Origin: Voacanga thouarsii
Lineage: Eukaryota; Streptophyta; Magnoliopsida; Gentianales; Apocynaceae
DNA length: 64,000 nt
Direction of reading: 5' to 3'
Assembly: GCA_026120185.1 (NCBI GenBank)
Contig: JANUWF010001481.1
Location: 2,981,001-3,045,000, forward strand
The stretch's first letter is position 1. Every line of letters starts with the position of its first letter. The notes below the pieces were generated by a model, which was given only the letters and a program-made list of their open reading frames with translations, was not told the origin of the DNA and searched no databases. Of the stretch, positions 6,890 to 64,000 are shown piece after piece. A program made the position numbers and the translations under genes.

Positions 6890-8734
6890 TGTAACACCCC
6901 ACTACCTAGGCCCATCAGGGCCGGGGATGTCGCCCCGTCCAAAGGACAATGGGTCTTTATAACTAGGTTACATGAAAATAGAATAATACAACATACTTTA
7001 AAATTAAATTTATTACAACCCAAAAGATAAATACTGGCACAAATCCAAGATAAATTGTTTGCAACAATCTCTCAAACAATACTTAAAGTAAATAACAAGA
7101 GTCTTCAAGCAAGGCAACATTCTAGCTAATGATCTCCACAGCAGGATCTTCCTGAAAATATGGCATAAAAGGTGGTGAGATAAAAATCTCAGTAAGCCCG
7201 TGTGTGCTTTAAGTGTTTCCGGTAAAATAATTCATGTATGCAAGTTGTAAAAGTTTCATAGGGAAAAGTGCTGGCAAGCAATAAATAAGTGTTGAAAATA
7301 AAGAGTGGTGTTTCACTTTTCAAATCATACATGTGCACAATAAATACAACCACTCAAATGGGTAGCCATGGGTTACCACACGTTGGGCCCCATGACCAAT
7401 AACAGTCAGAATGCCACACTTTGTGCAATGCTGACAAAAGGTAGGTGTACGGCCTATCGGGTGAGATACTCCTCCATCTATACACCCAAACTTATCGGTT
7501 GTCCACTCCGGAAATACACAGTCCACATGACTGAAACTTGCTAGCTCGGACCGGCATGACCTACCGGACTGGCGTCCTATCCAGGAAGGACTCACCCCTC
7601 AGAGGTGGCCACCTACTGAGAGACTTACCCTAACCCTTCAAAGACTAGTCCTGGTGGTCTACCCTTATTGAGTACTCAACGTTGATTGTTCCACTTGGGA
7701 GAAAATTGATCAAACTTTGCTTTATTTGGAAATAGCAATTAAAGGTTTCCAAAAGTCTAGTCAAGTTGGATTTTAGAAAAAGTTTAGATTTGTGTAAAAC
7801 TGCTTGTTCAATTTCCAAATGATTTGCTTGACTGAAATAAAAAGGAAAAACAGTCCTTAATTGCCTTTACAATTAAATGTCCTTATACATTGCATTTGCT
7901 TGCCACAATAACTTTTGGTCTTCACAAAACTCCATGCAGGAGCTTACCTGCTTCTTTGCTTGCTCTACTCAAAAGTCTTCCAAGGCTGACCTAACCCCTG
8001 CCTGGGGTAAACACAAAACATAAGGTCACATTCAAGCTATACCTACCTTACATAAATAATTCTTAGCTCATCTAATGACAACCATGTCTTACCATGACCT
8101 TAATGTCCTAAGCTTTAAGGCTAGATGCTGAAGAATTTTATAAAATACGTCTAGTTTGATAGGTTGAAATAACTAGGGGTTCTAAAATAATTGTTAATAA
8201 ATTATAGACTCAAATAATAATTCTTGAGTGTTATTATTAATAAATAAACCAATGTTTGAATTTTAAATATTATTAAGTCTTATTTAATATTAAGAAATGG
8301 TAATTTAAAACTAGCTTTATTATAAATAAATAATAAATTAAATAAATAATAATTTTTAATTAATTTCGAAGAGATAATCAATAATTAATAATAATTAAAA
8401 TTTATTAATAAATTATTTTAAATTTTCGTTTAATAAAAATATTAATAGTTTGATTTAATATTCTAATCCAAATCCCCTAGTGTTTCGAATTTTTTGAAGA
8501 AAAATATAGTAGTAATTTTAATTCATGTAATAAAATTTGTTGATGAATATAACTTAGAATTAACAAGAAAATAATCTTACATCATGGTCTTCCTATTGCT
8601 AGAAAAGATTCATGATCCCATTCTCCATCATCAAACAAGAAATTAATCTATTCATGAACAAACACTTAAACTATCTCATACTATCACATGGCCAAAAATC
8701 CTACTAAGCATAATCATCAATCATCGTTTCCATG
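6890..8734 (-). repeat. Family A LTR, 3' 1.85 kb, inverted (A3)
   Basis: Starts exactly at the LTR terminus TGTAACACCCC and runs as the reverse complement of the family A LTR 3' part, matching A2 from about 62150 to its end. At 8734 it stops inside the LTR, at CCATGG, and plus-strand LTR sequence takes over. The portion 6890-7671 is the reverse complement of 8775-9555 at about 97% identity by eye. The 91-codon ORF at 7320-7595(-) is simply the LTR block repeated at 8852-9127(+); I do not treat it as a gene. Confidence 0.8.
7176..7191 (-). other. Conserved LTR stem-loop (A3 copy)
   Basis: TGAGAT-AAAA-ATCTCA, a perfect 6-bp stem. Minus-strand equivalent of 9256-9271. Confidence 0.7.
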
Positions 8735-9555
8735 GACAACTGGTAAGTTTGGGTGTAGAGATGGAGGAGTATCTCTCAATAAGGGTAGACCACCAGGACT
8801 AGTCTTTGAAGGGTTAGGGTAAGTCTCTCAGTAGGTGGCCACCTCTGAGGGGTGAGTCCTTCCTGGATAGGACGCCAGTCCGGTAGGTCATGCCGGTCCG
8901 AGCTAGCAAGTTTCAGTCATGTGGACTGTGTATTTTCGGAGTGGACAACCGGTAAGTTTGGGTGTATAGATGGAGGAGTATCTCACCCGGTAGGCCGTAC
9001 ACCTACCTTTTGTCAGCATTGCACAAAGTGTGGCATTCTGACTGTTATTGGTCATAGGGCCCAACATGTGGTAACCCATGGCTACCCATTTGAGTGGTTG
9101 TATTTATTGTGCACATGTATGATTTGAAAAGTGAAACACCACTCTTTATTTTCAACACTTATTTATTGCTTGCCAGCACTTTTCCCTATGAAACTTTTAC
9201 AACTTGCATACATGAAATATTTTACCGGAAACACTTAAAGCACACACGGGCTTACTGAGATTTTTATCTCACCACCTTTTATGCCATATTTTCAGGAAGA
9301 TCCTGCTGTGGAGATCATTAGCTAGAATGTTTCCTTGCTTGAAGACTCTTGTTATTTACTTTAAGTATTGTTTGAGAGATTGTTGCAAACAATTTATCTT
9401 GGATTTGTGCCAGTATTTATCTTTTGGGTTGTAATAAATTTAATTTTAAAGTCTGTTGTATATCTATTTTCATGTAACCTAGTTATAAAGACCCCTTATC
9501 CTTTGGACGGGGCGATATCCCCGGCCCTGATGGGCCTAGGTAGTGGGGTGTTACA
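8735..9555 (+). repeat. Family A 5' LTR remnant of the gag-pol element
   Basis: Ends GGGGTGTTACA immediately before a tRNA-iMet PBS, so it serves as the 5' LTR of the element at 9558-14177. Only the last 0.8 kb of the LTR is present. Its first 40 bp (8735-8774) are an extra copy of the segment at about 8942-8982 with two mismatches. Normal LTR order then starts at 8775 (TCAATAAGGG). The junction with A3 shares TGGA. This is a rearranged, promoter-truncated LTR. Confidence 0.8.
9256..9271 (+). other. Conserved LTR stem-loop (family A)
   Basis: TGAGAT-TTTT-ATCTCA, preceded by CGGGCTTAC and followed about 20 nt later by ATATTTTCAGG, which resembles a 3' splice acceptor. The arrangement is shared with A1, A2, B, B2 and E2 LTRs. 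Confidence 0.75.
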
Positions 9556-9557
9556 AG

Positions 9558-9568
9558 TGGTATCAGAG
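9558..9568 (+). other. PBS for initiator tRNA-Met
   Basis: TGGTATCAGAG two bases after the LTR end. This is the usual start of the primer-binding site complementary to the tRNA-iMet 3' end and marks 9555 as the true 5' LTR end. Confidence 0.9.
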
Positions 9569-9653
9569 ACTAGGTTTAGGCAAGTATTGATAGTATATGT
9601 TTTGATTTATTAAGTTCAAATCTTTTGTCTGACCTTCTTGTTTGTGCTGTAGG

Positions 9654-10130
9654 ATGGTTAAAACGATTAGAACAGCAAGGAAAGGACAGCAATGGCACCC
9701 TCCCATTCCTATCTACCCGAAGGACCTACCTGTGCCTCAGTCTGCACCTCAGCCTGTACCACAGCCAATTATTGCCCTGGATGATAGTAGTGACGATGAG
9801 GTCCAGATCATTGAGCCACCTCCCATACCCGTGATCGACCTGGTTACTGATAGTGAAGACAAGGAGATAGACATGGAATATGTTCCCCTCCCTCCTAGTC
9901 CCATAGTTGATTTAACTGCTGACAGTGATGACCCAGGGGAGATAGATTATGAATCTCCACCTAAACCTTCCTTTGTAACCCCACCCAATCAGTTTGAGAC
10001 TGGGGAAAGTTCTAGGAGAGCTGGGAAGGAGCCAATAGATGGGTTTACCAGTGGGGCTGGGATAGACTTCACTAGGAATTCTGGGGGATGGATATATGAT
10101 GCCGACATTGAAGACTCTGATGAGGATTAG
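9654..10130 (+). CDS. Extra ORF1 upstream of gag: acidic protein with tandem SUMO-interaction-like motifs
   Basis: Intact ORF of 158 codons between PBS and gag. The ATG at 9654 is chosen because it directly follows a pyrimidine-rich acceptor-like site (GTGCTGTAG|G); the only in-frame extension upstream starts at a TTG. The N-terminus is basic (residues 3-10). Residues 16-60 are proline-rich. Three repeats spaced 21-24 residues apart each start PxP and carry a hydrophobic core with an acidic/serine tail: PIIALDDSSDDE (38-49), PVIDLVTDSED (59-69), PIVDLTADSDD (83-93). These fit known SUMO-interaction motifs (two or three V/I/L around D or x, then acids). The C-terminus ends EDSDED. No membrane segment is seen. 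It is the only undamaged reading frame of this element. Gag starts 273 bp downstream. SUMO binding is inference; it could be a generic acidic linker protein. Confidence 0.65.
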   Translation: MVKTIRTARKGQQWHPPIPIYPKDLPVPQSAPQPVPQPIIALDDSSDDEVQIIEPPPIPVIDLVTDSEDKEIDMEYVPLPPSPIVDLTADSDDPGEIDYESPPKPSFVTPPNQFETGESSRRAGKEPIDGFTSGAGIDFTRNSGGWIYDADIEDSDED

Positions 10131-10403: not shown

Positions 10404-11560
10404 ATGGCACCCAAACGTCGTGCAGCCACATCCAGCAGAAGGGTTCCTGAGGCAGAACCTGTGACACCGGAGATGGAAACAACTCAAAGGACATCACCAA
10501 ATCAAGGGGATGAGAACGAAATGGGGCCGAAAATGGGATCGGAAGAACCGGTTAGTATGACTATGACGCAAGCATTCCACAAAATGATCGAGATTCTGCA
10601 AAACTTGACTGAGCTGAGGAATCCGAAAGGGGAAGATGAGGCGTTGGAGCGGTTTCTGAAATTTCAACCGCCTATCTTCTTGGGAGAGGCTGAACAAGAC
10701 CAAAAAGCGGAACAATGGGTGGAACAAATGGAGGACATCTTTGCCACGCTCCAGTATACTGAAAGGCGTATGGTGAAGTTTGCCGCATTCCGACTAATGG
10801 GTCTAGCCCGGGCATGGTGGCACAGGGTTCAGGATGATTGGGAGATGATTGACCAAGACTGGACGTGGGCTAATTTCGTGGAAGCATTCCGGGCAGAATA
10901 TATCCCTCAGTGGATAGTCGAGAAGCGGGAAGACGAGTTCTAGAATCTAAAGCAGGGAAGCATGACGGTAGCCCAATACGTTGTGCGGTTCACGCAACTG
11001 TCAAAGTATTGCAAGAGGCTGGTGGATACTGAACAGAACCGAACGAGGCAATTTGTTAAGGGATTAAGGCAAGAGCTAAGAAGGGCGTTAGCACCCTCTC
11101 CACCGACGACTTATTCGGGGGCTGTGGACACAGCCACCCGTACTGAGAATGAAGACCGCAATCGATTGGCTTCCCGACCGTTCGTACCGATAAGACCGCC
11201 GCCAAGACCTTTTCAGAGGTAGCAACCTAACAAGCATCCTGCCAACCAGCAATGGCAGAATCGGAGAAAGCAAGCCCGAACAACGCCAGTTAGTCCAGTG
11301 CAGAATCTTCCTTTATGCCGACACTGTGGAAAAAGGGGCCATGTTGAGAAAAATTGTTGGTCCAAAGGAGGAGAGCGGAAATGCTACCACTGTGGAGATC
11401 CGAGCCATCTACGGAACACCTGCCCTAAGCTTCTCCGGATTGGACCGGGGAACCCAGCTCAGAACCCGGGGCCAAATCGAGCCAATACCTCGGGAGCTTC
11501 CGGGAGTGGAATACAGAAGCCGCAAGTGAAAGCAAAAGTTTTCGCTCTCAACCGGGAGGA
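10404..11560 (+). pseudogene. gag: Chromovirus gag (family A), with in-frame stops
   Basis: Start ATG 10404 (MAPKRRAA) follows a TTTAG|A acceptor-like site. The retrotransposon gag core runs from about 10620 to 11190 (LKFQPPIFLGEAEQDQKAE; WTWANFVEAFR; KGLRQELRRALAP). Two CCHC zinc knuckles follow at about 11313-11430 (CRHCGKRGHVEKNC, CYHCGDPSHLRNTC). The frame is uninterrupted except for TAG at 10941 and 11220. Comparison with element B, which has CAA at the first site, fits a C-to-T change. Gag and pol share one frame, as usual for chromoviruses. Confidence 0.9.
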
Positions 11561-12023
11561 GGTTGGAGCTGATGCAGCGGTAGTGGAAGGTACGCTTGCT
11601 ATCCAAGGTCGTTCTGTTAATGCATTGATAGACCCTAGATCTACCCATTCCTATTTAAATAAGAATTGTGCATATCAATTGGGTTGGGATGGAGTAGAAC
11701 TACCTTTTACCTTGGTAGTAAGTACGCCTTTGGGGAAAATGGTGCAAGCGGATCGGTATATGCAAAATTGTAAAGTTGAAGTAGGGAGAGAAAGCTTGGA
11801 GGGAGATCTAATAGTCATAGCTATTGATGATTATGATTTAATATTGGGGATGGATTGGTTAGCGAAGCATGGTGCTAGAGTAGACTGTAAGAATAAGTCA
11901 GTTTAGTTCATTAGACCAGGGTATGATGTGTTGTAGTTCAATGGCGAGAAAGTAAAAGAATTGAAGTTTTTGATAGCCGGGGCTAAAGCCCGGAAGTTGT
12001 TGAGGTAAGGATGTCAAGGATAT
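11561..12023 (+). pseudogene. Retropepsin-like protease region (family A)
   Basis: Same frame as gag. The expected catalytic triplet region reads LIDPRSTHS; the glycine normally present (DPGSTHS, seen across the solo LTR in element B) is arginine here. The codon pair CCC-GGA in B is CCT-AGA here, two transitions at one CpG. The flap/ILGMDWL segment is at about 11840-11860. Stops TAG 11904, TAG 11934 and TAA 12006 separate it from RT. The product would be inactive. Confidence 0.8.
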
Positions 12024-13576
12024 TTGGCTTATGTGATAAACAAGCCGAAGGACCAGTGCACCTTGGAGGATACTGAGGTGGTAAAGGATTTCCCCGACGT
12101 ATTCTCTGCGGAACTCACTTCTCTACCTCCCAATCGAGAAGTTGAGTTCACTATTGATCTAGTCCCAGGAGCAGAATCGGTGTCTCGAACTCCGTACTGG
12201 ATGGCACCGGCGGAGCTGAAAGAATTGAAGGAGCAGCTGGAAGAGTTGGTGCGGCAAGGCTATATCAGACCTAGCACGTCACCCTGGGGAGCACCTGTGC
12301 TATTTGTGAAGAAAAAGGATGGGACTCTAAGATTGTGTATTAACTACCGAGGCTTGAACAACCTGAATATCAAGAATAAATATCCTCTGCCGTTAATTGA
12401 CGAGCTGTTCGACCAGTTGCAAGGATCCAGTTGTTACTCCAAGCTGGATTTGAGGCAAGGCTACTATCAAGTGAGGATAAAAGAGGAAGATATTCCTAAG
12501 ACGGCCTTCAATACGAGATATGGTCACTATGAGTTTGTAGTGATGCCTTTCGGGGTAACCAATGCAACCGTGGTATTTATGGATTTGATGCATCGAGTGT
12601 TCCAGCCTTACTTGGACAAATTCGTGGTAGTCTTCACCGACGACATACTCATATACTCCAAGAGCCCGGAGGACCATGCAGAATATTTGAAGTTGGTACT
12701 AGAAAAGCTAAGGGAGCATAAGCTTTACGCCAAGTTTAACAAGTGCGAGTTTTGGCTGGATAGTGTGGCATTTCTTGGTCACGTGGTGACCAAGGATGGG
12801 ATCAAAGTAGACCCGGCGAAGGTTGAATCTGTTTCGGACTGGAAGCAACCAGAGAACATCACCGAGATTCGAAGCTTCTTGGGATTGGCTGGCTATTACC
12901 GGAGGTTTATTAAGGGATTTTCAACGCTAGCATTTCCTATGACCCGGCTGCTGAGAAAGGACGTACCTTTTGTATGGAATGAAAAATGCGAAAAGAGTTT
13001 TCAAGAGTTGAAGTGGAGGCTAATACAGCGCCAGTGTTGAGTCTACCAGAAGCAGATAAACCTTACGCTCTATATACGGATGCTTCGAAGGAAGGCTTGG
13101 GAGCCGTTCTGATGTAAGATAGGAAGTTGATCGCCTATGCTTCTCGAAAATTGAAGCCACATGAAGTCAATTATCCCACGCATGATCTAGAGCTGGCTGC
13201 CATTGTGTTCGCATTAAAGAAATGTCGACACTATTTGTATGGGGCGGAATATGAGGTGTTCACTGATCACAAAAGCCTGAAGTACATCTTCACCCAGAAG
13301 GACTTGAATTTGAGGCAGCGAAGATGGATGGAATTTCTGGAGGAATACCGGTGTCCTATCAACTACCACCCCGGGAAAGCCAACGTCGTTGCTGATGCCC
13401 TGAGCCGGAAAGTCAGAATGGCCAGGCTAAGAGTACAAGAGGTTAAAATGGTTCAGGACGTGTTGGACAGAAAAGCAGAAGTGCAAGAAAAGAGGATCAT
13501 TATTAGCAACCTGAAGTTGACACCAGATCTAAGGTGGGAAATTGTTGAAGCCCAGCAGAGTAATGCGGAATTTTAG
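12024..13576 (+). pseudogene. Reverse transcriptase and RNase H (family A, Tekay/Del-like chromovirus)
   Basis: RT motifs are in order: [66 protein letters not shown], then FTDDILIYS (catalytic DD kept, usual I/V before it replaced by T). The thumb/connection AFLGHVV is followed by RNase [30 protein letters not shown] and ADALSRK. A frameshift lies near 13015-13040, TAA at 13115 (CAA in element B) and TAG at 13574. The GYYQVRI/RYGHYEF style is typical of plant chromoviruses; assignment to Tekay/Del is by recollection of those motifs and long LTRs. Confidence 0.88.
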
Positions 13577-14177
13577 CTTTTCAGGGATAAGGAGCTTAAA
13601 CGGCAAGGTAGTGAATTTCGACAGGACGGAGCGGGAGTGTTGTACTTCCGAGATCGTTTGTGTGTACCCGAGGAGCACCAGTTAAGGGACAAAATTTTAG
13701 AAGAAGCGCATAAGAGCAAGTACGCCATTCATCCGGGAGAGGTCAAGATGTATCAAGATCTGAAAAAGTCTTATTGGTGACCTGGGAAGAAGCAGAATGT
13801 GGTTAAGTATGTCTCAACGTGTCTAACCTGTCAGAAAGTCAAAGCGGAGCACAAGAAGGTGGCAGGATTAATACAACCGTTGCCAGTACCGGAATGGAAA
13901 TGGGAAGAAGTGACCATGGACTTCATCACCGGACTCCCTATGGCAAGGAACCAAAAAGACGCCATATGGGTAGTGGTGGATCGATTGACCAAGTCGGCGC
14001 ATTTCATACCCGTGAATGTAAGGGATTCAATGGAAAAGTTGGCTCAGACCTATGTACGGGAGATAGTCAGATTGCACGGAGTACCTTCGAGTATTGTGTC
14101 CGAACGTGATCCGAGATTTACATCCCGATTTTGGGGTAAGTTTCAAGAATCGATGGGTTCTAGTCTGAAGTTCAGTA
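13577..14177 (+). pseudogene. Integrase, truncated (family A)
   Basis: Zinc-binding HHCC (H-x5-H in HKSKYAIHPG; CLTC) then core DFITGLP and ERDPRFTSRFW. TGA at 13778 replaces a tryptophan codon (TGG in element B). The second catalytic Asp region reads SERD instead of the usual SDRD. Homology stops at 14177, before the DDE glutamate (QSER segment), so the catalytic core and any chromodomain are missing. From 14178 the sequence is minus-strand gag of another element. Confidence 0.85.
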
Positions 14178-15321
14178 TTGGAAGACCCTTCATCATTTGT
14201 AGGACTCATCCCTAACTTATTTTGATCCATTGTAAACACTTTTGCTTTCACTTGAATGTTAATCGATTTTCCTCATTCTTCCCACCATTTCTATTAGTAA
14301 CCTTATTTACTGATGGGTTGGAAGTTCTTTGGATACCTTGCAATCTTAGGTAATTGTTATTTAAAGTGAGTGGGATCTCCGCAGTTAAAACACCTTCAAT
14401 GATTATTCTTATGCGAATAGTCCTTTTCTCTATATCCTCTTGTCCCACAAAAACAACAACCTAATTCTTTCCAATTATTCATAGCCAAAGTGATTCGAGC
14501 ATGTTTGCCTTCATTATTCCAATATTACTTTAGTGGTCTCTTAGCAGGAAATTTCTCGACGAATGTTGTTGTTTTACTTGTAAACTTATTCTTATCTTCA
14601 TTCTCTGTTCTCATAGCATCATCAATAGCAATAGAATATGTCATGGATGGAAAATAAGCTAATGCATGTCTTAATTTTGGCCTTAAACCTTTTATAAATT
14701 GGCAAGCATGGTTCTGCTCAGTGTCAATCAAACGGCGATAATACTTTGACAATCTACCAAATTGTGCCGCATAGTATGCCACCATCATGTTTTCCTACTT
14801 TAAATTTTGAAATTTGTCTTCTCACTTTTCAATTATCCATTACAGTATATACTCCACTCGAAATGCTATCACAACGGTAATCCAATTGCACTCCTCCCCA
14901 TCTTGCTCTCATACTTCCTAGACCCTTGTCTACCAATCTTTTGCTGGCCTTTTCAGATGAAAGGATGCAAACTTTATCATCCTCTTTTCTGAATATTTTA
15001 AGGTTCAGAAGATGTCCTCCATGCTCTCAAGCCATATCTCAGTTTTTTGGTCTTATTCCGCTTCTCTTAAGAAAATAGGAGGCTGAAATTTCAAAAATTT
15101 CTCCAATGCATCATCATCGCCCTTTTGATCCCTCTTCTTCGTTAGATTCCGCACTATCTCTGTCGTTGTCCCAAAAATTGGGCAGCAGTCACTTCTTCAG
15201 CTCACCCAACTTCAATTGCACAAGGAGGGTTTGCCATCAGATTAGCTCTTTGGACTGGCTGATTTACTATCAAAGCCCTTCCGTTATTACTTATAGTGGT
15301 GCGAATTTTTGGAGGCATCTT
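14178..15321 (-). pseudogene. gag: Inverted gypsy gag fragment (element E2)
   Basis: Read leftward from 15321 it begins MPPKIRTT and follows gag of family A: LEKFLKFQPPIFL (about 15110-15070), the block at 14788-14525 (LSKYYRRLIDTEQN, FIKGLR, DAMRTENEDKNKF), then two worn zinc knuckles (about 14460-14370, CGTRGYREKDY and CFNCGDPTHFK) and the VKAKVFTMDQNKLG linker. Several stops occur. It ends at the junction with family A integrase near 14178; its pol and 3' LTR are absent. It is continuous on the right with leader, PBS and LTR (to 20017), apart from the inserted LTR F. Confidence 0.8.
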
Positions 15322-45749: not shown

Positions 45750-48217
45750 CAACTCTTGCAAACTTTTTCTTTTTTATCTTTGATTAAACTATTTTTTACC
45801 CCTATTTATTTTCCCCATGGCTGAAACCCAAGGGCTGCCGCCTTCTTATTTTTCCCACCTCCTAAAAAAAATAGGAATGTGATTATTTTGGGGATTACTA
45901 AAAAAGAACTATGGTAAATTAAATTCCTAATATTCTTTAGTTAATATTTTATTCTAACATTTTAGGAAGTGAAATATTCCAACATCTAGAGTTTCCTATA
46001 AGGTCTTATCCAAAGGATTAATTATGGAAAGAAAAAGATAGAAGCTTTGATTTTGGAAACTAGATTTTATCACCAAAAATAATTATACCTGAATTAATTA
46101 ATTTTTACTAAAATAAATTAGGATATTAACTAAATTATTTCTTGGATTAATAACCTATTTTCATTGCTTAAAATTTCTGAAAAAACACAGAACCCTAGCC
46201 GCCACTAAGGGTTGTTTTAATTACTTTCCAATTCTCTAAAATATAGGAATCTACCTTAAGTAATTTTAACCAACCAAAGTTCCTTTAGGCTAAGCAAATA
46301 ACTAGAAATTTCTCTCTTCTCTCCTCCTAAATTTTGGCCACTGTAGCATCCTAAAACACAAACATAAACTCCTTCTATTCATTGCACAATCTCAGCCAAA
46401 CTAAGAAGAGCAAAAGCTGTCATTTTTCCCTTATTTGTTCAAGAGTCCAAAACAATGTGTAATTCTTTCCAAACATCAAAAAACCTAAACCTAACATATT
46501 CCCTTCATCAAACTAGCCTCAAACAAACCCTAAACACCTTCTACTACCCAAAAATTCTAGTCACCAACCCTCCTCCGCATCTCGGCCAAAACAGCACCAA
46601 AACTCCATCAAAGATGAAAACCAACTCTAAGGTAAGCAACTCCAAAACTCTTTATCAACTCCTCTTCAATTATTCTCATCTTCTTCTCCTAAATCTTGAT
46701 CAAAAGCAATTGATTTACCCCTATCCCCAGTGACCTTCGAACTAAGGAAGCCAAAGGGGAACAATCGATTCTCTCCCTCAAGCAAACCCAAGCAACCACC
46801 AAAAGTGCCACATTTTCCCTTGTTGTACCGTCAAAGAGGTAATTAAGTCTTAACTCCTCTGATTTATATTAGGGTTGAATATATGGTGGGGACATTATGC
46901 ATAAAGCCTAGCATAAAGCATGATTTGATTAGATTGATGAACTCGATGGTGTAATATAACGAACTAGGCATATATGGCATTGAATATGGATAAAAATTGC
47001 TATGATAATCTGGATCTATTGTATGTTGAATATAGATAAGATCTTTTGATGAAGTTAGGGTTAATATATGGAGTTAATGGTAATTGAGCATAGAAGTCAT
47101 TATGTAGATTATTCGATTTGTCTATAAGCATGCATAATGATGAGATGCATTATTATGGGAAGTTATAGAGATTACTTAATGCATTAATTCATCTAGATGC
47201 CATGGATAAATTAGATGATTAATATGATCATGGGGATTCATGTTGCATGAAATGATAGTGGCTAGGCCATGTGCAATATTTTGATTTCTAACATAGAATC
47301 ATTGATACTAGATAAGGAAGAAATCTAAAAAGAGTGCAAGCATTAGCTTTGGCTCGACTAGTTAAGTAATCAAGTAAGTCTCTGCATAACTATTTTGCTA
47401 AATATTACATGTTTGCAAGTCTTTTGTACAATGGTGTCACTGTGATGATTGACATGAGGATTGAAACAATGAATGAACATGATGAAATAATATTGTTGTA
47501 TTTTGATACTTGGATTGAGAACGTGGATATTTTAAACTCCAAATGATTTTGTCAAATCTTAAATTTCAAACTAAAAATGGTTTATTTTCCTTTTTCACTA
47601 AAATGTTTTGGAAAGCTTTTTGTGAAAAATCACATTTTACAAAGACAGGATAATTAATGATTGTGAAAATAAGGGAAATGATTCTACCCCTAAATGGAAA
47701 GCGTTGAGTACTCAGCAGGGATAGGCTAGTGGGACTAGTCTTGGAGAGTTGGAATGAATCTTCTAGCAAGCAGCCACTTTTAGAAGATAAACTCTACTTA
47801 AAGAGGCAACAGTACTACTTAGTCAGGCCGGTCCGAGCTAACATATTAGTCTATGTGGACTTTATTCTTTTAGATTGGACAATTAGTGTATTGGGTGTAG
47901 AGATGGAGGAGTATCTTATCCTAGTAGGCGGATTACCACTGCCCAGTGTTGAACGGTTACAATGGGAGCTATCATGATGGTAGTTATGATATTGCCTTGA
48001 TATTGATATTGATAATGAATCATTACTAATCCCTACTTTATGAATTTATGAAATTGATGAGTGGCTGATTTATTGAGAGTTGTTTTGAATATGGCGAGCA
48101 TTGCTCCACCCAATGGTTGTTTATTGATGAAAATTGACTTGCAAACTTATTTTGTGATTTTGGTAAACCTACATGCACAAAATATTTAAATGTGACATCT
48201 GCACATACGGGACTTAC

Positions 48218-48233
48218 TAAGATTCCAATCTCA
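48218..48233 (+). other. Conserved LTR stem-loop (B 5' LTR)
   Basis: TAAGAT-TCCA-ATCTCA; one pair of the 6-bp stem is lost. GACTTAC precedes it, as in family A (GGCTTAC). Confidence 0.65.
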
Positions 48234-48640
48234 AATTATTTTGTATCATGTTTTTAGGGGAATAATTTAATTGAGCAGGTTGAAGAAATAAGAGATGATC
48301 ATTCAATTTATTTTATTTTATTTTACTTTGTATTTCTTCTGAGAGACGATTGTTAGTTTCTAAATTTTCAGACTTGTAAGTTTTGACTTCAATATAATAC
48401 GATCATTATTTTATTTCATCTAATCATTTTCTTTTTGTACCTCGTTATCAAGACCTCTGGTCCATTAGACGGGCGACATCCTGCCCTATTTGGGTGCGTA
48501 GGCAATGGGGTGTTACAAATGGTTTAGGCGATTAACTTGATTGAATAGTACCTAAACTCTAGGAATTGAGATTTATTGAATAATACTTGAACACTAGGAA
48601 TCTAGATTTAGTTCTGACTTCTTTATGTTTTACTTATAGG

Positions 48641-49228
48641 ATGAATAGAAGATCTGTAGCTATGACCAGGGATTGGCCTTTTATGTGTGGTCCTGCGAGT
48701 GGTAGAGCACCTAGCCCCCTTCCCATACCAGATTCATCATCATCTGATTCAGAGATAGAACCCAGGAGAGGATGGTTTTTGGGTGAAGATGAGATAGACC
48801 GTGAGCCATCTATGATAGAAGACTTTGGAGTAGAGAAAGAACCCGAGGACCCGATACTTGAGATGCCTGCACTTGAATGGATTATGGATATGGTAGAGTA
48901 TGAGAGAGATGATGAGGGGGAGATAGGGGATGGAGGAGTAATGGGTGATAAGAGTGAGGACGAGCTAGGAGGACTTGGGATTGAGGGGGAGATAAGAGAG
49001 CTTGAAAGCAAGGGTGAAGCGGAAGTGATTGAGGAGGAGGATAGAATTGATACACCTGCGACCCCATCAATAGAGGAAGGAGTCCCGATGCTTCTGGGAA
49101 ATGAATCATATAAGTTAGAATCTGGGAGACCCAAGAGTGTATTAATGTTAGCTATGGAACAGTTTGGGGATGTAGAGTTGAGAGCTAAGCTGAGAGGTAA
49201 GGAACTTGCCGGGTTTATGTTGGGTTAG
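48641..49228 (+). CDS. Extra ORF1 of chromovirus B: acidic protein upstream of gag
   Basis: ATG 48641 directly follows a TTACTTATAG|G acceptor-like site, as for ORF1 of family A. 195 codons, rich in Glu, Asp, Gly and Ser. It has PIPDSSSSDSEIEP (about residues 28-41) and WIMDMVEYERDDE, which are weakly like the motifs in the family A ORF1. After the TAG at 49226 the frame continues to about 49360 (PRKKHRSFSFSR, SETSEDSSDSSDA), so the ancestral protein was probably longer and had a basic patch and an acidic end, like A's EDSDED tail. No known domain. Function unknown; conservation of place, charge and start context in two families argues against chance. Confidence 0.5.
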   Translation: MNRRSVAMTRDWPFMCGPASGRAPSPLPIPDSSSSDSEIEPRRGWFLGEDEIDREPSMIEDFGVEKEPEDPILEMPALEWIMDMVEYERDDEGEIGDGGVMGDKSEDELGGLGIEGEIRELESKGEAEVIEEEDRIDTPATPSIEEGVPMLLGNESYKLESGRPKSVLMLAMEQFGDVELRAKLRGKELAGFMLG

Positions 49229-57837: not shown

Positions 57838-59844
57838 TGTAACACCCTACTACCTATGTACCTAAATAGGTGGGATGTTACTCCATCCAATGGATTAGGG
57901 GTCTTTATAACGAGATACAAAAGGAACGAAAATGACTAAATAAAATAATGCGATAATCTTATTACAACCAAAGTTAAAACTTATATAAGTCTGAGAATCT
58001 AAAATTAACAATTGTATCTCCAAAAAAAAATCCAAAGTAGAAATAAATAAATTGAACGTCATCTCTTATCTTTTCAACATGCTCAATAAAAGCTCTCCCC
58101 TGAAAATATGATGTAAAATAGTGTGAGATTGGCATCTCAGTAAGTCCTATATGTGTGAATATCATATATAAATATTTCATGCATACAGGTTCATCAAAAC
58201 CACAAAATCATGTTTACAAGACTTTTCATTCATAAACAATCAGTCAAAGAAGCATTGCTAATCATATCCAAAGCAATTCTCAATAAATCATCATCTTATC
58301 ATAATCATAAAGGAGCATTGGTCATCATATCCAAAGCAGTTCTCAATAAATCATTATCTCATCATAATCATAAGTTAATTATGTAGGGATTAGCAATGAT
58401 TCAAATAATAGTATCACCATCCATATCATAGTTACTACCACGATAGCGTCCCAATATAACCTTTCAACAATGGACAGTACGGGATTTTTTCACTAGGGTG
58501 AGATACTCCTCCATCTCTATACCCAACACACCAATTGTCTAACCCGAATAAATAAAGTCCACATAGACCTATATGCTAGCTCGGACCGGCCTGATTAAGT
58601 AGTACTGTCGTCTTTCCAAGTTGAGTTCATCTTCTAGAAGTGGCCTCCTACCAGAAGACTCATTCTAGCTCTTTAAGACTAGCACCACTAGCCTACTCCC
58701 ATAGAGTACTCAACGCTCGCTATTTAGGGGCAGAATCATTTCTCTTATTTTCACAATCGTTGATTACTTTATCTTTGTAAAATGTGATTTTTCACAATAA
58801 GTTTTCCAAAACAATTAGTAATAAAGAAAAGAGAAATCCTTTTCAGTTTAAAAGTTGAGATTTGACAAACACAATTAGAGAATAAAATGACCACGTTCTC
58901 AAACCAAACATCAAAATACCACAATACAATTCATCATATTCAACCAACATTCCAATGATCATGCCAATCATCATATTAACACCATTTCAAATATCATTGT
59001 ACAAAAATACTTACAAACATATAATATTTAGCAAAACAGTTATGCAGGGACTTACTTGGATATTCTCAATAATCAACCAAGGCAACGTTTGACCTTTTTT
59101 TTATCTTCCATATGTAAAATCAATGTTTCTATGGTTAGAACAGAAATAATGCACATGACCTAGCCACTATTATTTCATGCAACATGAATCTCCATGATCC
59201 CATAGATCAACCATGGTATCTAAACGCATCAATTTAATAAACTATGCCCATATTCTTCTCTCGTTATGCTACTCATCATTAAGCTTACATATACTCAATT
59301 TAACTAATCAGGATGATAACCCCCATACTAAACTATCATTAAATCCCTATAATAACCCCAGATGAATTAAAAAATCTCATCTTTAACCAACCATAAGATG
59401 GATCTAGGTCCAACTTAACATGATATCATAATATTTCACCCCATATTCACCTAGATCAACTATTTCTCTATCAAACTCAACTATCCCATCCATTCATGCT
59501 TTTCATGCTATACTTTATACATAATAACATCACTATAAAAATCAGTCTCATTTAAATCAATTGGGATTGAGTCTCAAAATACCTCTTGGATAAACAAGAC
59601 TACAAAACAAATGTGGCTCCTTGGCGATCGGTTGAGTTCACTTGAGAGGAAAAGATGATTGGGTCCCTTAATTCTTGCTCTTAGGTTTCGATTTTGGTAG
59701 TGATTGGAGTTGTGATGGCCAAAATCTTGGAGAGAAAATGTGGTTGTTTTTTTTTTTTTTTTTTTGAAGAAGAAGAAGAAGAGAGGTTTAGGGTTTGATT
59801 GGTGACTATTTTGATGAAGAGTATAGGTTAGGTTTAGGTGTTTT
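57838..59844 (-). repeat. Second family B LTR (B2), inverted and nested
   Basis: Starts exactly at the LTR terminus TGTAACACCC and reads as the reverse complement of the last 2.0 kb of the B LTR. It stops at 59844, where LTR A2 begins at its own terminus. This fits an inverted insertion into B's 3' LTR that was later interrupted by A2. It has the shared block (about 58490-58715) and the stem-loop. Confidence 0.8.
58124..58139 (-). other. Conserved LTR stem-loop (B2)
   Basis: TGAGAT-TGGC-ATCTCA on the plus strand: a full 6-bp stem, restoring the pair missing in the B 5' LTR copy. Confidence 0.7.
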
Positions 59845-61777: not shown

Positions 61778-63792
61778 ACCGAAATGGTTGATCAACCATC
61801 AACCATGGTCGTTTTCCCGTTGGATCATTCAAGGCTCTCAATCGCGTGGACCTTCTTAATTCTTCATCGAAGTGTTCATCAAATCAAGTATTTTCCTTTA
61901 ATCCTTCTTTTAATTCGGTATTCATGTCTCTTAGATATTGATGGGAAGAATGAAATATGGATAAGGGATTGAGTATATGCATGTGGATTAAGGGGATGGA
62001 GTTAGGACATGATGATTGTTGTATATGACTAGGATGTATGTGTTTTCCTTTCGAATCAATGTATGTTCTTCATGCTTAATGAATTTTATGGAGGTTTGAA
62101 GCATGATTAGATATTATGACACCAAAGGTGATTAGGCTTTTATGTTCTTATTTTTCCATGGAAACCATGATTGATGATTACGCTTAGTAGGATTTTGGCC
62201 ATGTGATGGTAAGAGATAGTTCAAGTGTATGTTCATGAATGGATTAATATATTGTTTGATAATGGAGAATGTGATCATGAATCCTTTCTAGCAATAGGAA
62301 AATCATAGTGAAAAAGTATTTTCTTGTTAAGTCTAAATTATTTTTATTAACAAATTTTGTTACCTTGAATAGAATACTACTATATTTTTCTCTATAAAAT
62401 TCGAAACTCTAGGGAGATTTGGAGTGGTTTATTAATTAAAATATTAATATTTTCTTTATCAAATAAATGAGATCTTTTATTAAAAATGATATGTATAGTA
62501 ATAAATCCTTTACAATAAATAAAATATTATTTATATTAAAATCTATTTGTTATTTATTAATTAAAATTTAAAATAATTCATTCATTATTAATTTTATTTA
62601 TTACTAATTATTTATTATCTATTTAAAAATTAATTAAAGGTTATTTGTAATTAAATATTTATTTATAATAAAGCTATTTTTAAATCACCATTTATTAATA
62701 CTATTTAGGACTTAATATTCAAACCTTAGTTTATTTATTAAAAATAACACACAAGAATTACTGAATGAGTCTATAATTTATTAGCAATTATTTTAGAACC
62801 CCAAGTTATTTTAACTTATCAACTAAAACTTATTTTATAAAATTCTTTATCACCTAGCCTTAAAGCATAGGATATTATGGTCATGGCTAGACATGGTTGT
62901 AACTAGTTGAGCTAAGAAATTATTTATGTAAGGCAGGTATAGCTCGAATGTAACCCTATGTTTTGTGTTTACCCCAGGCGGGGTTAGGACAGCCTCGGAA
63001 GACGTTTGAGTTGAGCAAGCAAAGAATCAGGTAAGCTCCAGCATGGAGTTTTGTGAAGACCAAAAAGTTGTTGTGGCAAGCCAAACACGATGTATATGAA
63101 CATTTATTTTGTGAAGGCAATTAAGGACTGTTTTTCCTTTTTATTTCAGTCAAGCAAATCATTTGAAAGTTAAACAAGCAGTTTTACACAAAATGCTAAA
63201 CTTTTTCTAAAACCCAACTTTGACAAGACTTTTAGAAACCCTTAATTGCTATTTCCAAATAAAGCAAAGTATGATCAATTTTCTCCCATGTGGAACAATC
63301 AACGTTAAGTACTCAATAAGGGTAGACCACCAGGACTAGTCTTTGAAGGGTTAGGGTAAGTCTCTCAGTAGGTGGCCACCTCTGAGGGGTGAGTCCTTCC
63401 TGGATAGGATGCCAGTCCGGTAGGTCATACCGGTCCGAGCTAGCAAGTTTCAGCCATGTGGACTGTGTGTTCCGGAGTGGACAACCGGTAAGTTTGAGTG
63501 TAAAGATGGAGGAGTATCTCACCCGGTAGGCTGTACACCTACCTTTTGTCAGCTTGCACGAAGTGTGGCATTCTGACTGTTATTTAGTCTTGGGGCCCAA
63601 CGTGTGGTAACCCATGGCTACCCATTTGAGTGGTTGTATTTATTGTGCACGTGTATGGTTTGAAAAGCGAAACACCACTCTTTATTTTTTACACTTATTT
63701 ATTGCTTGTCAGCACCTTTTCCTTATGAAACTTTTACAACTTGCAGACATGAATTATTTTACCGGAGACACTCAAAGCACACACGGGCTTAC

Positions 63793-63808
63793 TGAGATTC
63801 GTATCTCA
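63793..63808 (+). other. Conserved LTR stem-loop (A2)
   Basis: TGAGAT-TCGT-ATCTCA, followed by CCATGTTTTCAGG. Stem identical to the copy at 9256, loop different. Confidence 0.75.
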
Positions 63809-64000
63809 CCACTTTTTACACCATGTTTTCAGGAAGATCCTGCTGTGGAGGTCATTAGCTAGATTGTCGCCTATGCTTTGAAGACTCATGTTATTTACTT
63901 TATGTGATGTTTTGGAGAGATCGTTGCAAACAGTTTATTTGGATTTGTTCCAATACTTATCTTTAAGGTTGTAATAAGTTTAATTTTAAAGTCTTTATTT

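What the first reader, a model, noticed from the sequence alone, without database searches (positions are those of the whole stretch)
9654..10130. Retrotransposon ORF1 with three spaced SUMO-interaction-like repeats
Seen: the only undamaged frame of a dead chromovirus encodes three units (38-49, 59-69, 83-93), each PxP + hydrophobic core (IIAL, VIDL, IVDL) + acidic/Ser tail, spaced 21-24 residues. Known: SUMO-interaction motifs have exactly such cores next to acids or phosphorylatable serines, and tandem copies bind poly-SUMO in SUMO-targeted ubiquitin ligases. Inference: the element may dock on SUMOylated chromatin or silencing proteins to steer integration or evade silencing. I know of no described chromovirus protein of this kind, but I could not search.
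Basis: partly seen in the sequence, partly recalled or inferred. Interest (0 to 1): 0.85.

Follow-up and report, generated by a model that had tools for sequence, protein, structure and literature searches.

The report
Retrotransposon protein with paired SUMO-binding-like motifs
A small, probably unstructured protein encoded ahead of gag in a decayed plant-type retrotransposon belongs to a family whose repeated, well-kept stretch looks like two SUMO-binding motifs back to back, which gives a long-unexplained extra gene of plant retrotransposons a function that can be tested.

Summary
The ORF is real: 9654-10130(+), 158 aa, between the primer-binding site and gag of a decayed Ty3/gypsy element. 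Its three hydrophobic/acidic cores (residues 39, 60, 84) exceed composition shuffles (36 of 20,000). An extra ORF here is a known thing (ORF0/5' aORF of RIRE3, Retrosat2, sunflower Tekay), function unknown. New: 34 homologous JGI proteins, many of them fragments, define a 19-residue unit, acid-[VI][QE][IV][LI]-E-PPPIP-[VI][VI]DL[VT]-[TS]-acid: a SUMO-interacting motif (SIM) of reversed polarity, a proline linker and a forward SIM. Of 35 proteins, 27 carry the double unit (33 units); 200 shuffled rounds gave mean 0.24, maximum 2. The unit is better conserved than the rest (79% against 41% over 66 pairs from a search with the unit masked). Human ZNF451 has the same layout, but here the linker is shorter and the PLRP arginine absent, so E3-ligase membership fails. 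The intact frame proves nothing (chance 0.37-0.51). dN/dS could not be done. Most likely a multivalent SUMO-binding adaptor; SUMO binding is untested. An HP1-type PxVxL reading overlaps the same residues and stays open.

The parts
8775..9555 (+). 3' part of the 5' LTR, ending GGGGTGTTACA
9558..9569 (+). primer-binding site TGGTATCAGAGA (11 of 12 bases of the usual plant iMet-tRNA site; that consensus is recalled)
   Evidence: sequence
9654..10130 (+). ORF0 (5' additional ORF), 158 aa, acidic, 15.8% proline, low AlphaFold2 confidence
9801..9857 (+). unit 2 (residues 50-68), complete double unit: (DDE)VQII-EPPPIP-VIDLV-TDSE
9873..9929 (+). unit 3 (residues 74-92): (EID)MEYV-PLPPSP-IVDLT-ADSD
10404..10943 (+). 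start of gag (MAPKRR...), interrupted by an in-frame stop
11298..14215 (+). decayed rest of gag-pol: zinc knuckles, protease, RT, RNase H, part of integrase
48641..49228 (+). ORF in the same place in a second, diverged element; 195 aa, acidic, PIPDSSSSDSE near its N-terminus and one weak unit-like stretch ILEMPALEWIMDMVEYERDDE; homology marginal (E 0.22)

Best explanation
ORF0 is the 5' additional ORF of a Ty3/gypsy element, probably of the Tekay chromovirus lineage. It encodes an acidic, proline-rich, probably disordered adaptor whose working parts are repeated double SIMs: an acid-preceded strand (V[QE]I[LI]) expected to lie in the SUMO groove in one polarity and an acid-followed strand ([VI][VI]DL[VT]) in the other, joined by EPPPIP. 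Each unit would grip two SUMO moieties, or one groove in either polarity, so that repeated units give avidity for poly-SUMO or multi-SUMOylated host proteins, possibly raised by phosphorylation of the following S/T (CK2-like sites). Shown here: the frame, the family, the unit and its selective conservation. Inferred: SUMO binding. Speculative: that the element uses it to reach or disturb SUMO-rich nuclear sites (silencing complexes, integration targets).
For: 34 homologues. Double-unit pattern (written after seeing the family) 33 times in 27 of 35 proteins, against mean 0.24 and maximum 2 in 200 shuffled rounds. In 44 stretches scoring 25 or more: hhXh core in 38, at least three acids in positions 16-23 in 44, [ST]xx[DE] in 35. 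Unit 79% identical against 41% for the rest over 66 pairs (12 of the 13 masked-search hits that span the unit), unit ahead in 65. Masked search: 13 of 15 hits span the region and all 13 carry the unit; the other two start inside or after it. [quoted passage not shown] Units 2 and 3 of the window ORF differ mostly silently (pS 0.83, pN 0.39, 19 codons).
Against: No SUMO-binding measurement. SIMs are loose motifs and many putative ones are likely not real (PMC8616421). The unit profile matches no PDB chain at E<=10, not even the ZNF451 chain. The same residues also fit PxVxL (35 of 44 broad, 22 of 44 strict). Some columns outside the unit are as conserved as any in it (the top four columns lie outside), so the unit is not the only constrained part. 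Homologues are short JGI records without named hosts or DNA, so neither dN/dS nor their place before gag was tested. The ORF of the second element has no clear unit. For the silencing idea: the MOM1-SUMO contact is reported as not required for silencing in Arabidopsis (PMC6084981, outline heading and section 9).
Confidence: 0.6

Rival explanations
1. The conserved stretch P-x-V-x-L inside each unit (PVVDL, PVIDL, PIVDL) is an HP1-type chromoshadow-domain ligand, so ORF0 binds a plant LHP1-like protein and tethers the element to chromatin.
For: Broad PxVxL in 35 of 44 units and strict in 22 of 44; four broad matches in the window ORF, reached in 16 of 20,000 shuffles.
Against: It does not explain the conserved D at the second x (37 of 44), the following acids, or the first strand VQIL-E. 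The leading P is lost while the core VVDL or VIDL stays in one unit each of P0003 and P0010; in the last unit of P0030 (EIDLT) the P and one core position are both changed. The PxVxL consensus and the plant LHP1 partner are recalled.
Confidence: 0.15
2. Acidic/hydrophobic transcription-activation or other protein-binding segment with no link to SUMO (for example recruiting Mediator, or binding the element's own Gag or integrase).
For: Acidic and proline-rich composition, low predicted order; such composition is common in activation domains (recalled).
Against: Activation domains are usually rich in aromatic/Leu clusters and loosely conserved (recalled); here a unit of near-fixed spacing is kept (32 of 33 double units have a 6-residue linker).
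Confidence: 0.15
3. ZNF451-type SUMO E3/E4 ligase module: the double SIM clamps SUMO-charged E2 and builds SUMO chains.
For: Same order reverse SIM - proline linker - forward SIM. Local alignment of the family consensus with the 5D2M peptide is reached by 13 of 5000 shuffles; with the IDLV half kept and only the first half shuffled, by 229 of 5000 for the consensus and 120 of 5000 for the window unit.
Against: Linker between cores is 6 residues (9 in P0030) against 10 in ZNF451 counted the same way (a review counts the ZNF451 spacer as eight); spacer length and the PLRP Arg are reported as critical (PMC12751080, PMC12630355, passages), and none of the 33 double units has an Arg in the linker.
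Confidence: 0.06
4. Chance low-complexity acidic/proline sequence with no function, intact only by luck.
For: The frame is expected to survive by chance.
Against: Family-wide conservation of the unit.
Confidence: 0.04

Closest known systems
ORF0 / 5' aORF of Tekay-type chromoviruses: RIRE3, RIRE8, Retrosat2/FRetro3 (rice), sunflower Tekay 13-2
   Same: Place between 5' LTR and gag; proline-rich and low order (sunflower 402 aa, 92.5% disordered, 15.9% proline; here 158 aa, 15.8% proline); LTR ends alike (TGTCACACCC...GGGCGTGACA in Retrosat2 against TGTAACACCC...GGGTGTTACA here)
   Different: Published guesses are metabolism/catabolism and a dsRNA-binding-like fold; the word SUMO is not in either paper's held text. 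Their sequences were not at hand, so whether they carry the unit is untested
ZNF451 tandem-SIM SUMO E3 module (PDB 5D2M)
   Same: Acid - reverse SIM (IQFV / VQII) - proline linker - forward SIM (YIDLV / VIDLV) - Ser/acid
   Different: Linker 10 against 6; PLRP Arg absent; one to a few repeats; retrotransposon protein without zinc finger
RNF4-type SUMO-targeted ubiquitin ligase (tandem SIMs)
   Same: Several IVDLT-like cores with acids (RNF4 sequence recalled)
   Different: No RING: no Pfam family is matched by more than one of 35 members, best E 0.016
Plant SUMO pathway parts linked to transposons (KAONASHI ULP1-like genes in Mutator-like elements; MOM1/PIAL2 silencing complex)
   Same: Link between plant transposons and SUMO (KAONASHI recalled, search listing only; MOM1 abstract and one section)
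   Different: Protease genes or host silencing factors, not a retrotransposon-encoded SIM adaptor

Membership tests
5' aORF/ORF0 of Tekay-type chromoviruses | Separate ORF between 5' LTR and gag, same strand | tested here: met
   ORF 9654-10130 between LTR end 9555 and gag ATG 10404
5' aORF/ORF0 of Tekay-type chromoviruses | Host element is a chromovirus (integrase chromodomain) of the Tekay lineage | tested here: inconclusive
   Element A is cut off inside integrase. Of six translated pieces of element B's integrase region one has SH3_Tf2-1 at E 1.3e-13; none matched a chromodomain at E<=1. Lineage rests on LTR ends and PBS only
5' aORF/ORF0 of Tekay-type chromoviruses | Sequence similarity to described aORFs | not tested
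   Sequences of described aORFs were not held; published work itself found none between sunflower and grasses
SIM-bearing protein | hhXh/hXhh aliphatic core with flanking acids or phosphorylatable Ser | tested here: met
   definition from PMC8616421 (passages)
SIM-bearing protein | Core lies in a disordered region | tested here: inconclusive
   mean pLDDT 59, pTM 0.18 with a 35-row alignment; DSSP returned nothing; residues 51-60 (unit 2) have the highest block mean, 75
SIM-bearing protein | Binds SUMO through the core | not testable with these tools
   needs a binding assay
ZNF451-type tandem-SIM E3 | Reverse SIM, proline linker, forward SIM in this order | tested here: met
   33 units in 27 of 35 proteins
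ZNF451-type tandem-SIM E3 | PLRP linker with essential Arg and fitting length | tested here: not met
   linker 6 residues in 32 of 33 units, Arg in 0 of 33
HP1 chromoshadow PxVxL ligand | PxVxL | tested here: met
   35 of 44 broad, 22 of 44 strict; motif recalled
HP1 chromoshadow PxVxL ligand | Binds a chromoshadow domain | not testable with these tools
   needs a binding assay
SUMO-targeted ubiquitin ligase | RING domain | tested here: not met
   no Pfam family matched by more than one of 35 members at E<=0.1, none of the five a RING

The most novel reading that the evidence does not exclude
A lineage of plant LTR retrotransposons encodes, ahead of gag, a dedicated SUMO-clamping protein built of paired reverse-forward SIM modules that hold two SUMO moieties (a chain, or SUMO-charged E2 plus a second SUMO), so that the element captures or rewires the host SUMO pathway during transcription, silencing or integration. 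That would give the long-unexplained ORF0/5' aORF its function and be a retrotransposon counterpart, evolved separately, of the ZNF451 tandem SIM.
Probability: 0.25. Interest if true: 0.88.

Novelty: new variant of a known kind. Interest (0 to 1): 0.62.

Why it matters
Extra ORFs ahead of gag are described in rice, maize, sorghum and sunflower elements and have no accepted function. A conserved, repeated double-SIM unit turns that into a direct binding question with a simple answer. If true, an LTR retrotransposon carries its own reader of a host modification tied to chromatin and silencing, and a linker variant is added to the few known tandem-SIM modules.

Tried and rejected
Rejected as evidence: the intact frame. 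Rejected as membership: ZNF451-type E3 (Arg and linker length) and STUbL (no RING). Tried without result: Pfam on ORF0 and on all 35 members; PDB by sequence for the unit profile (21 stretches; no match, not even the ZNF451 chain) and for the protein, where the only hit is a designed protein at E 0.0096 with no stretch passing on its own; plasmids; viral contigs with the ORF0 alignment and with the RT frame and genome contigs, no relative confirmed; therefore no homologue DNA and no dN/dS. The second structure job was run on P0016 alone, without an alignment (mean pLDDT 46), and is not used as evidence. The homology of the second ORF (48641-49228) is marginal: E 0.22, ahead of all 500 shuffles but close to the best of them (0.5) and to an unrelated frame (0.31). 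In one search I translated that ORF one base out of frame, so its shuffle numbers there are void; the protein was redone, but that shuffle test was not repeated. Selection bias: searches found homologues partly through the unit itself, and one search scored only the 7989 candidates sharing most words. One search masked the unit, but its nine query rows came (P0016, prepared, was left out for its acidic low-complexity run); 5 of its 15 hits were query rows, 2 were new, and 4 of the 9 query rows were not returned for a reason I do not know. Pairs dropped for too little overlap: 12 of 78 (all those with P0034), 327 of 595, and 10 of 34 for the window protein.

Full report
What is there. A Ty3/gypsy element lies on the + strand: LTR end at 9555 (GGGGTGTTACA), primer-binding site TGGTATCAGAGA at 9558-9569, an intact ORF at 9654-10130, gag from the ATG at 10404, then protease, RT, RNase H and part of integrase, with 8 in-frame stops in the 1260 gag-pol codons counted and a frame change near 13010. 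The element breaks off near 14.2 kb. The ORF encodes 158 aa without any Pfam match at E<=1. AlphaFold2 with a 35-row alignment gives mean pLDDT 59 and pTM 0.18, and DSSP returned nothing, which fits disorder but does not prove it; the block of residues 51-60, in unit 2, is the most confident (75). That the host is a plant is inferred from the element type; no host was identified.

Is the pattern more than chance? Cores IIAL (39), VIDL (60) and IVDL (84), each followed by acids and serines, are there. Three core-plus-acid sites are reached in 36 of 20,000 shuffles of the same composition. The 'undamaged frame' argument fails: with the decay seen in gag-pol the chance of no stop is 0.37 (length) or 0.51 (nine codons one transition away from a stop).

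The family. A search with the single protein gave 3 relatives, and a search with their alignment 32 (the 3 included) among 7989 candidates scored. A third search with the unit replaced by X gave 15, two of them new: 34 relatives in all, each from one JGI contig (longest contigs 0.9-2.9 kb), unnamed, many of them fragments. Members that reach the N-terminus mostly share M-V-R-x-x-x-T-A-R-K-x-x-x-W-H-P-P-I-P-I; others show acidic PAGPEIE-like stretches, one or two (rarely three) units, a SFEESRE stretch, a basic RTAKRTR stretch and a C-terminal GFYEP or GFW (by eye). P0030 is the nearest relative (58% in the alignment). The window protein lacks the SFEESRE and RTAKRTR stretches but keeps FTRNSGGW near its end (by eye).

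The unit. Nearly all units align without gaps over 19 residues: [VI][QE][IV][LI]-E-PPPIP-[VI][VI]-D-L-[VT]-[TS]-[DE]-x-E; P0030 has three more residues in one linker. Of 44 stretches scoring 25 or more in 30 of 35 proteins (a few of them degenerate), 38 have an hhXh core, 32 have hh[DN]L, 44 have at least three acids in positions 16-23, 35 have a CK2-like [ST]xx[DE], and 35 have the reversed strand with at least two acids before it. A double pattern (acids, hXhh, linker of 5-10 with two or more prolines, hhXh, acids; written after seeing the family) occurs 33 times in 27 of 35 proteins; 200 rounds of shuffling all 35 gave mean 0.24 and maximum 2. Of the eight proteins without it, P0021, P0025 and P0027 begin inside or at a unit, P0023, P0028 and P0035 begin about where or after it would end, P0032 ends or changes before it, and P0020 has a degraded unit. 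Among masked-search hits the unit is 79% identical against 41% for the rest, ahead in 65 of 66 pairs (12 proteins; pairs with P0034 fell out). Over all proteins it is 66% against 36%, ahead in 246 of 268 usable pairs of 595; the window protein against 24 of 34 others gives 69% against 27%. The unit is not the only constrained part: the four most conserved single columns lie outside it. Within the window protein, units 2 and 3 differ mostly at silent sites (pS 0.83, pN 0.39; only 19 codons); unit 1 against unit 2 does not show this (pS 0.60, pN 0.53). This is protein-level evidence of constraint; dN/dS on homologues could not be computed.

Mechanism. [quoted passage not shown] The unit has both: acids then V-Q-I-I, and V-I-D-L-V then T-D-S-E. 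Two SIMs of opposite polarity in one short stretch are known from human ZNF451; the PDB chain 5D2M_G holds DDIQFVSEGPLRPVLEYIDLVSSDDEEP, and a review describes an anti-parallel and a parallel SIM there, tethering donor SUMO and a second SUMO on the E2 (PMC12751080, passages). Local alignment of the unit consensus with that peptide scores 43 against a shuffle mean of 23 (13 of 5000 reach it). When the IDLV half is kept and only the first half shuffled, 229 of 5000 reach the score for the consensus and 120 of 5000 for the window's own unit, so most of the likeness is the common forward SIM and the likeness of the first half is modest. A profile of 21 unit stretches found no PDB chain at all, ZNF451 included. 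The linker is 6 residues (9 in P0030) against 10 counted the same way (the review gives eight for ZNF451), and the PLRP arginine, reported as essential (PMC12630355, passages), is missing. I therefore propose a SUMO-binding adaptor and do not file it as an E3 ligase.

Rivals. PxVxL, the HP1 chromoshadow ligand (recalled), lies on the same residues: 35 of 44 units broadly, 22 strictly. It leaves the fixed Asp, the acids and the first strand unexplained, and the proline is lost while the core stays in one unit each of P0003 and P0010. It cannot be excluded. An acidic activation or Gag-binding segment is also possible.

What is known. Extra ORFs ahead of gag are described: ORF0 of Retrosat2, RIRE3 and RIRE8 in rice and of maize, sorghum and Brachypodium homologues, said not to be found outside grasses (PMC3485330, passages), and a 5' aORF in sunflower Tekay elements, 402 aa, 92.5% disordered, 15.9% proline, nuclear by prediction, in 500 of 523 elements (PMC11728184, passages). 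Proposed functions are catabolism and a dsRNA-binding-like fold. The word SUMO is in neither text. My searches found no report of a SUMO link: 'Tekay' with 'SUMO' (one paper, a genome annotation, listing only); LTR retrotransposon, integrase or chromovirus with SIM (909 papers, none of the 20 listed held the SIM term); SIM with retrotransposon and integration (8,651 papers, 20 listed; the best one, PMC5741268, mentions SIMs only in its references, passages); SIM with transposon anti-silencing (no paper). Unlisted papers and those outside the library were not seen. In plants MOM1 binds SUMO through a SIM, but the paper heads a section 'not required for transcriptional silencing' (PMC6084981, abstract, outline and section 9), which weakens the simplest escape-from-silencing story.

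Second element. Another, diverged element in the window (about 47.8-58.7 kb) has a stop-free acidic ORF of 195 aa in the same place (48641-49228). The family profile scores it above the other unrelated frames of the window and all 500 shuffles, but only at E 0.22. It shares PIPDSSSSDSE and a loose ILEMPALEWIMDMVEYERDDE, so it may be a distant relative in which the unit has drifted; not proven. Its survival fits its low number of stop-prone codons (0.38), though not its length (0.006).

Verdict. The gene kind is known; the repeated double-SIM unit and its selective conservation were not found described in the searches named above. SUMO binding about 0.6; the downstream role is open.

Noticed in passing
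6890-7672 and 8775-9555: LTR-derived stretches of about 783 bp, 98.2% identical in inverted orientation, with a 1.1 kb spacer, directly upstream of the element; looks like a reversed LTR abutting a 5'-truncated LTR.
   Followed up: partly
46894-48517 and 57838-59525: The flanks of the second element match each other mainly in inverted orientation (74-75%), not as direct LTRs, so its real 3' LTR is unclear.
   Followed up: partly
62152-63994: Reverse-strand copy of the same LTR family, 85-92% identical, running to the window end.
   Followed up: partly
14634-15134: Reverse-strand gag-like fragment (65% identity) right behind the broken integrase of the first element.
   Followed up: no
48641-49228: Stop-free acidic ORF ahead of a heavily damaged gag in the second element (10 stops in the 381 gag codons counted), possibly a distant ORF0.
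   Followed up: partly
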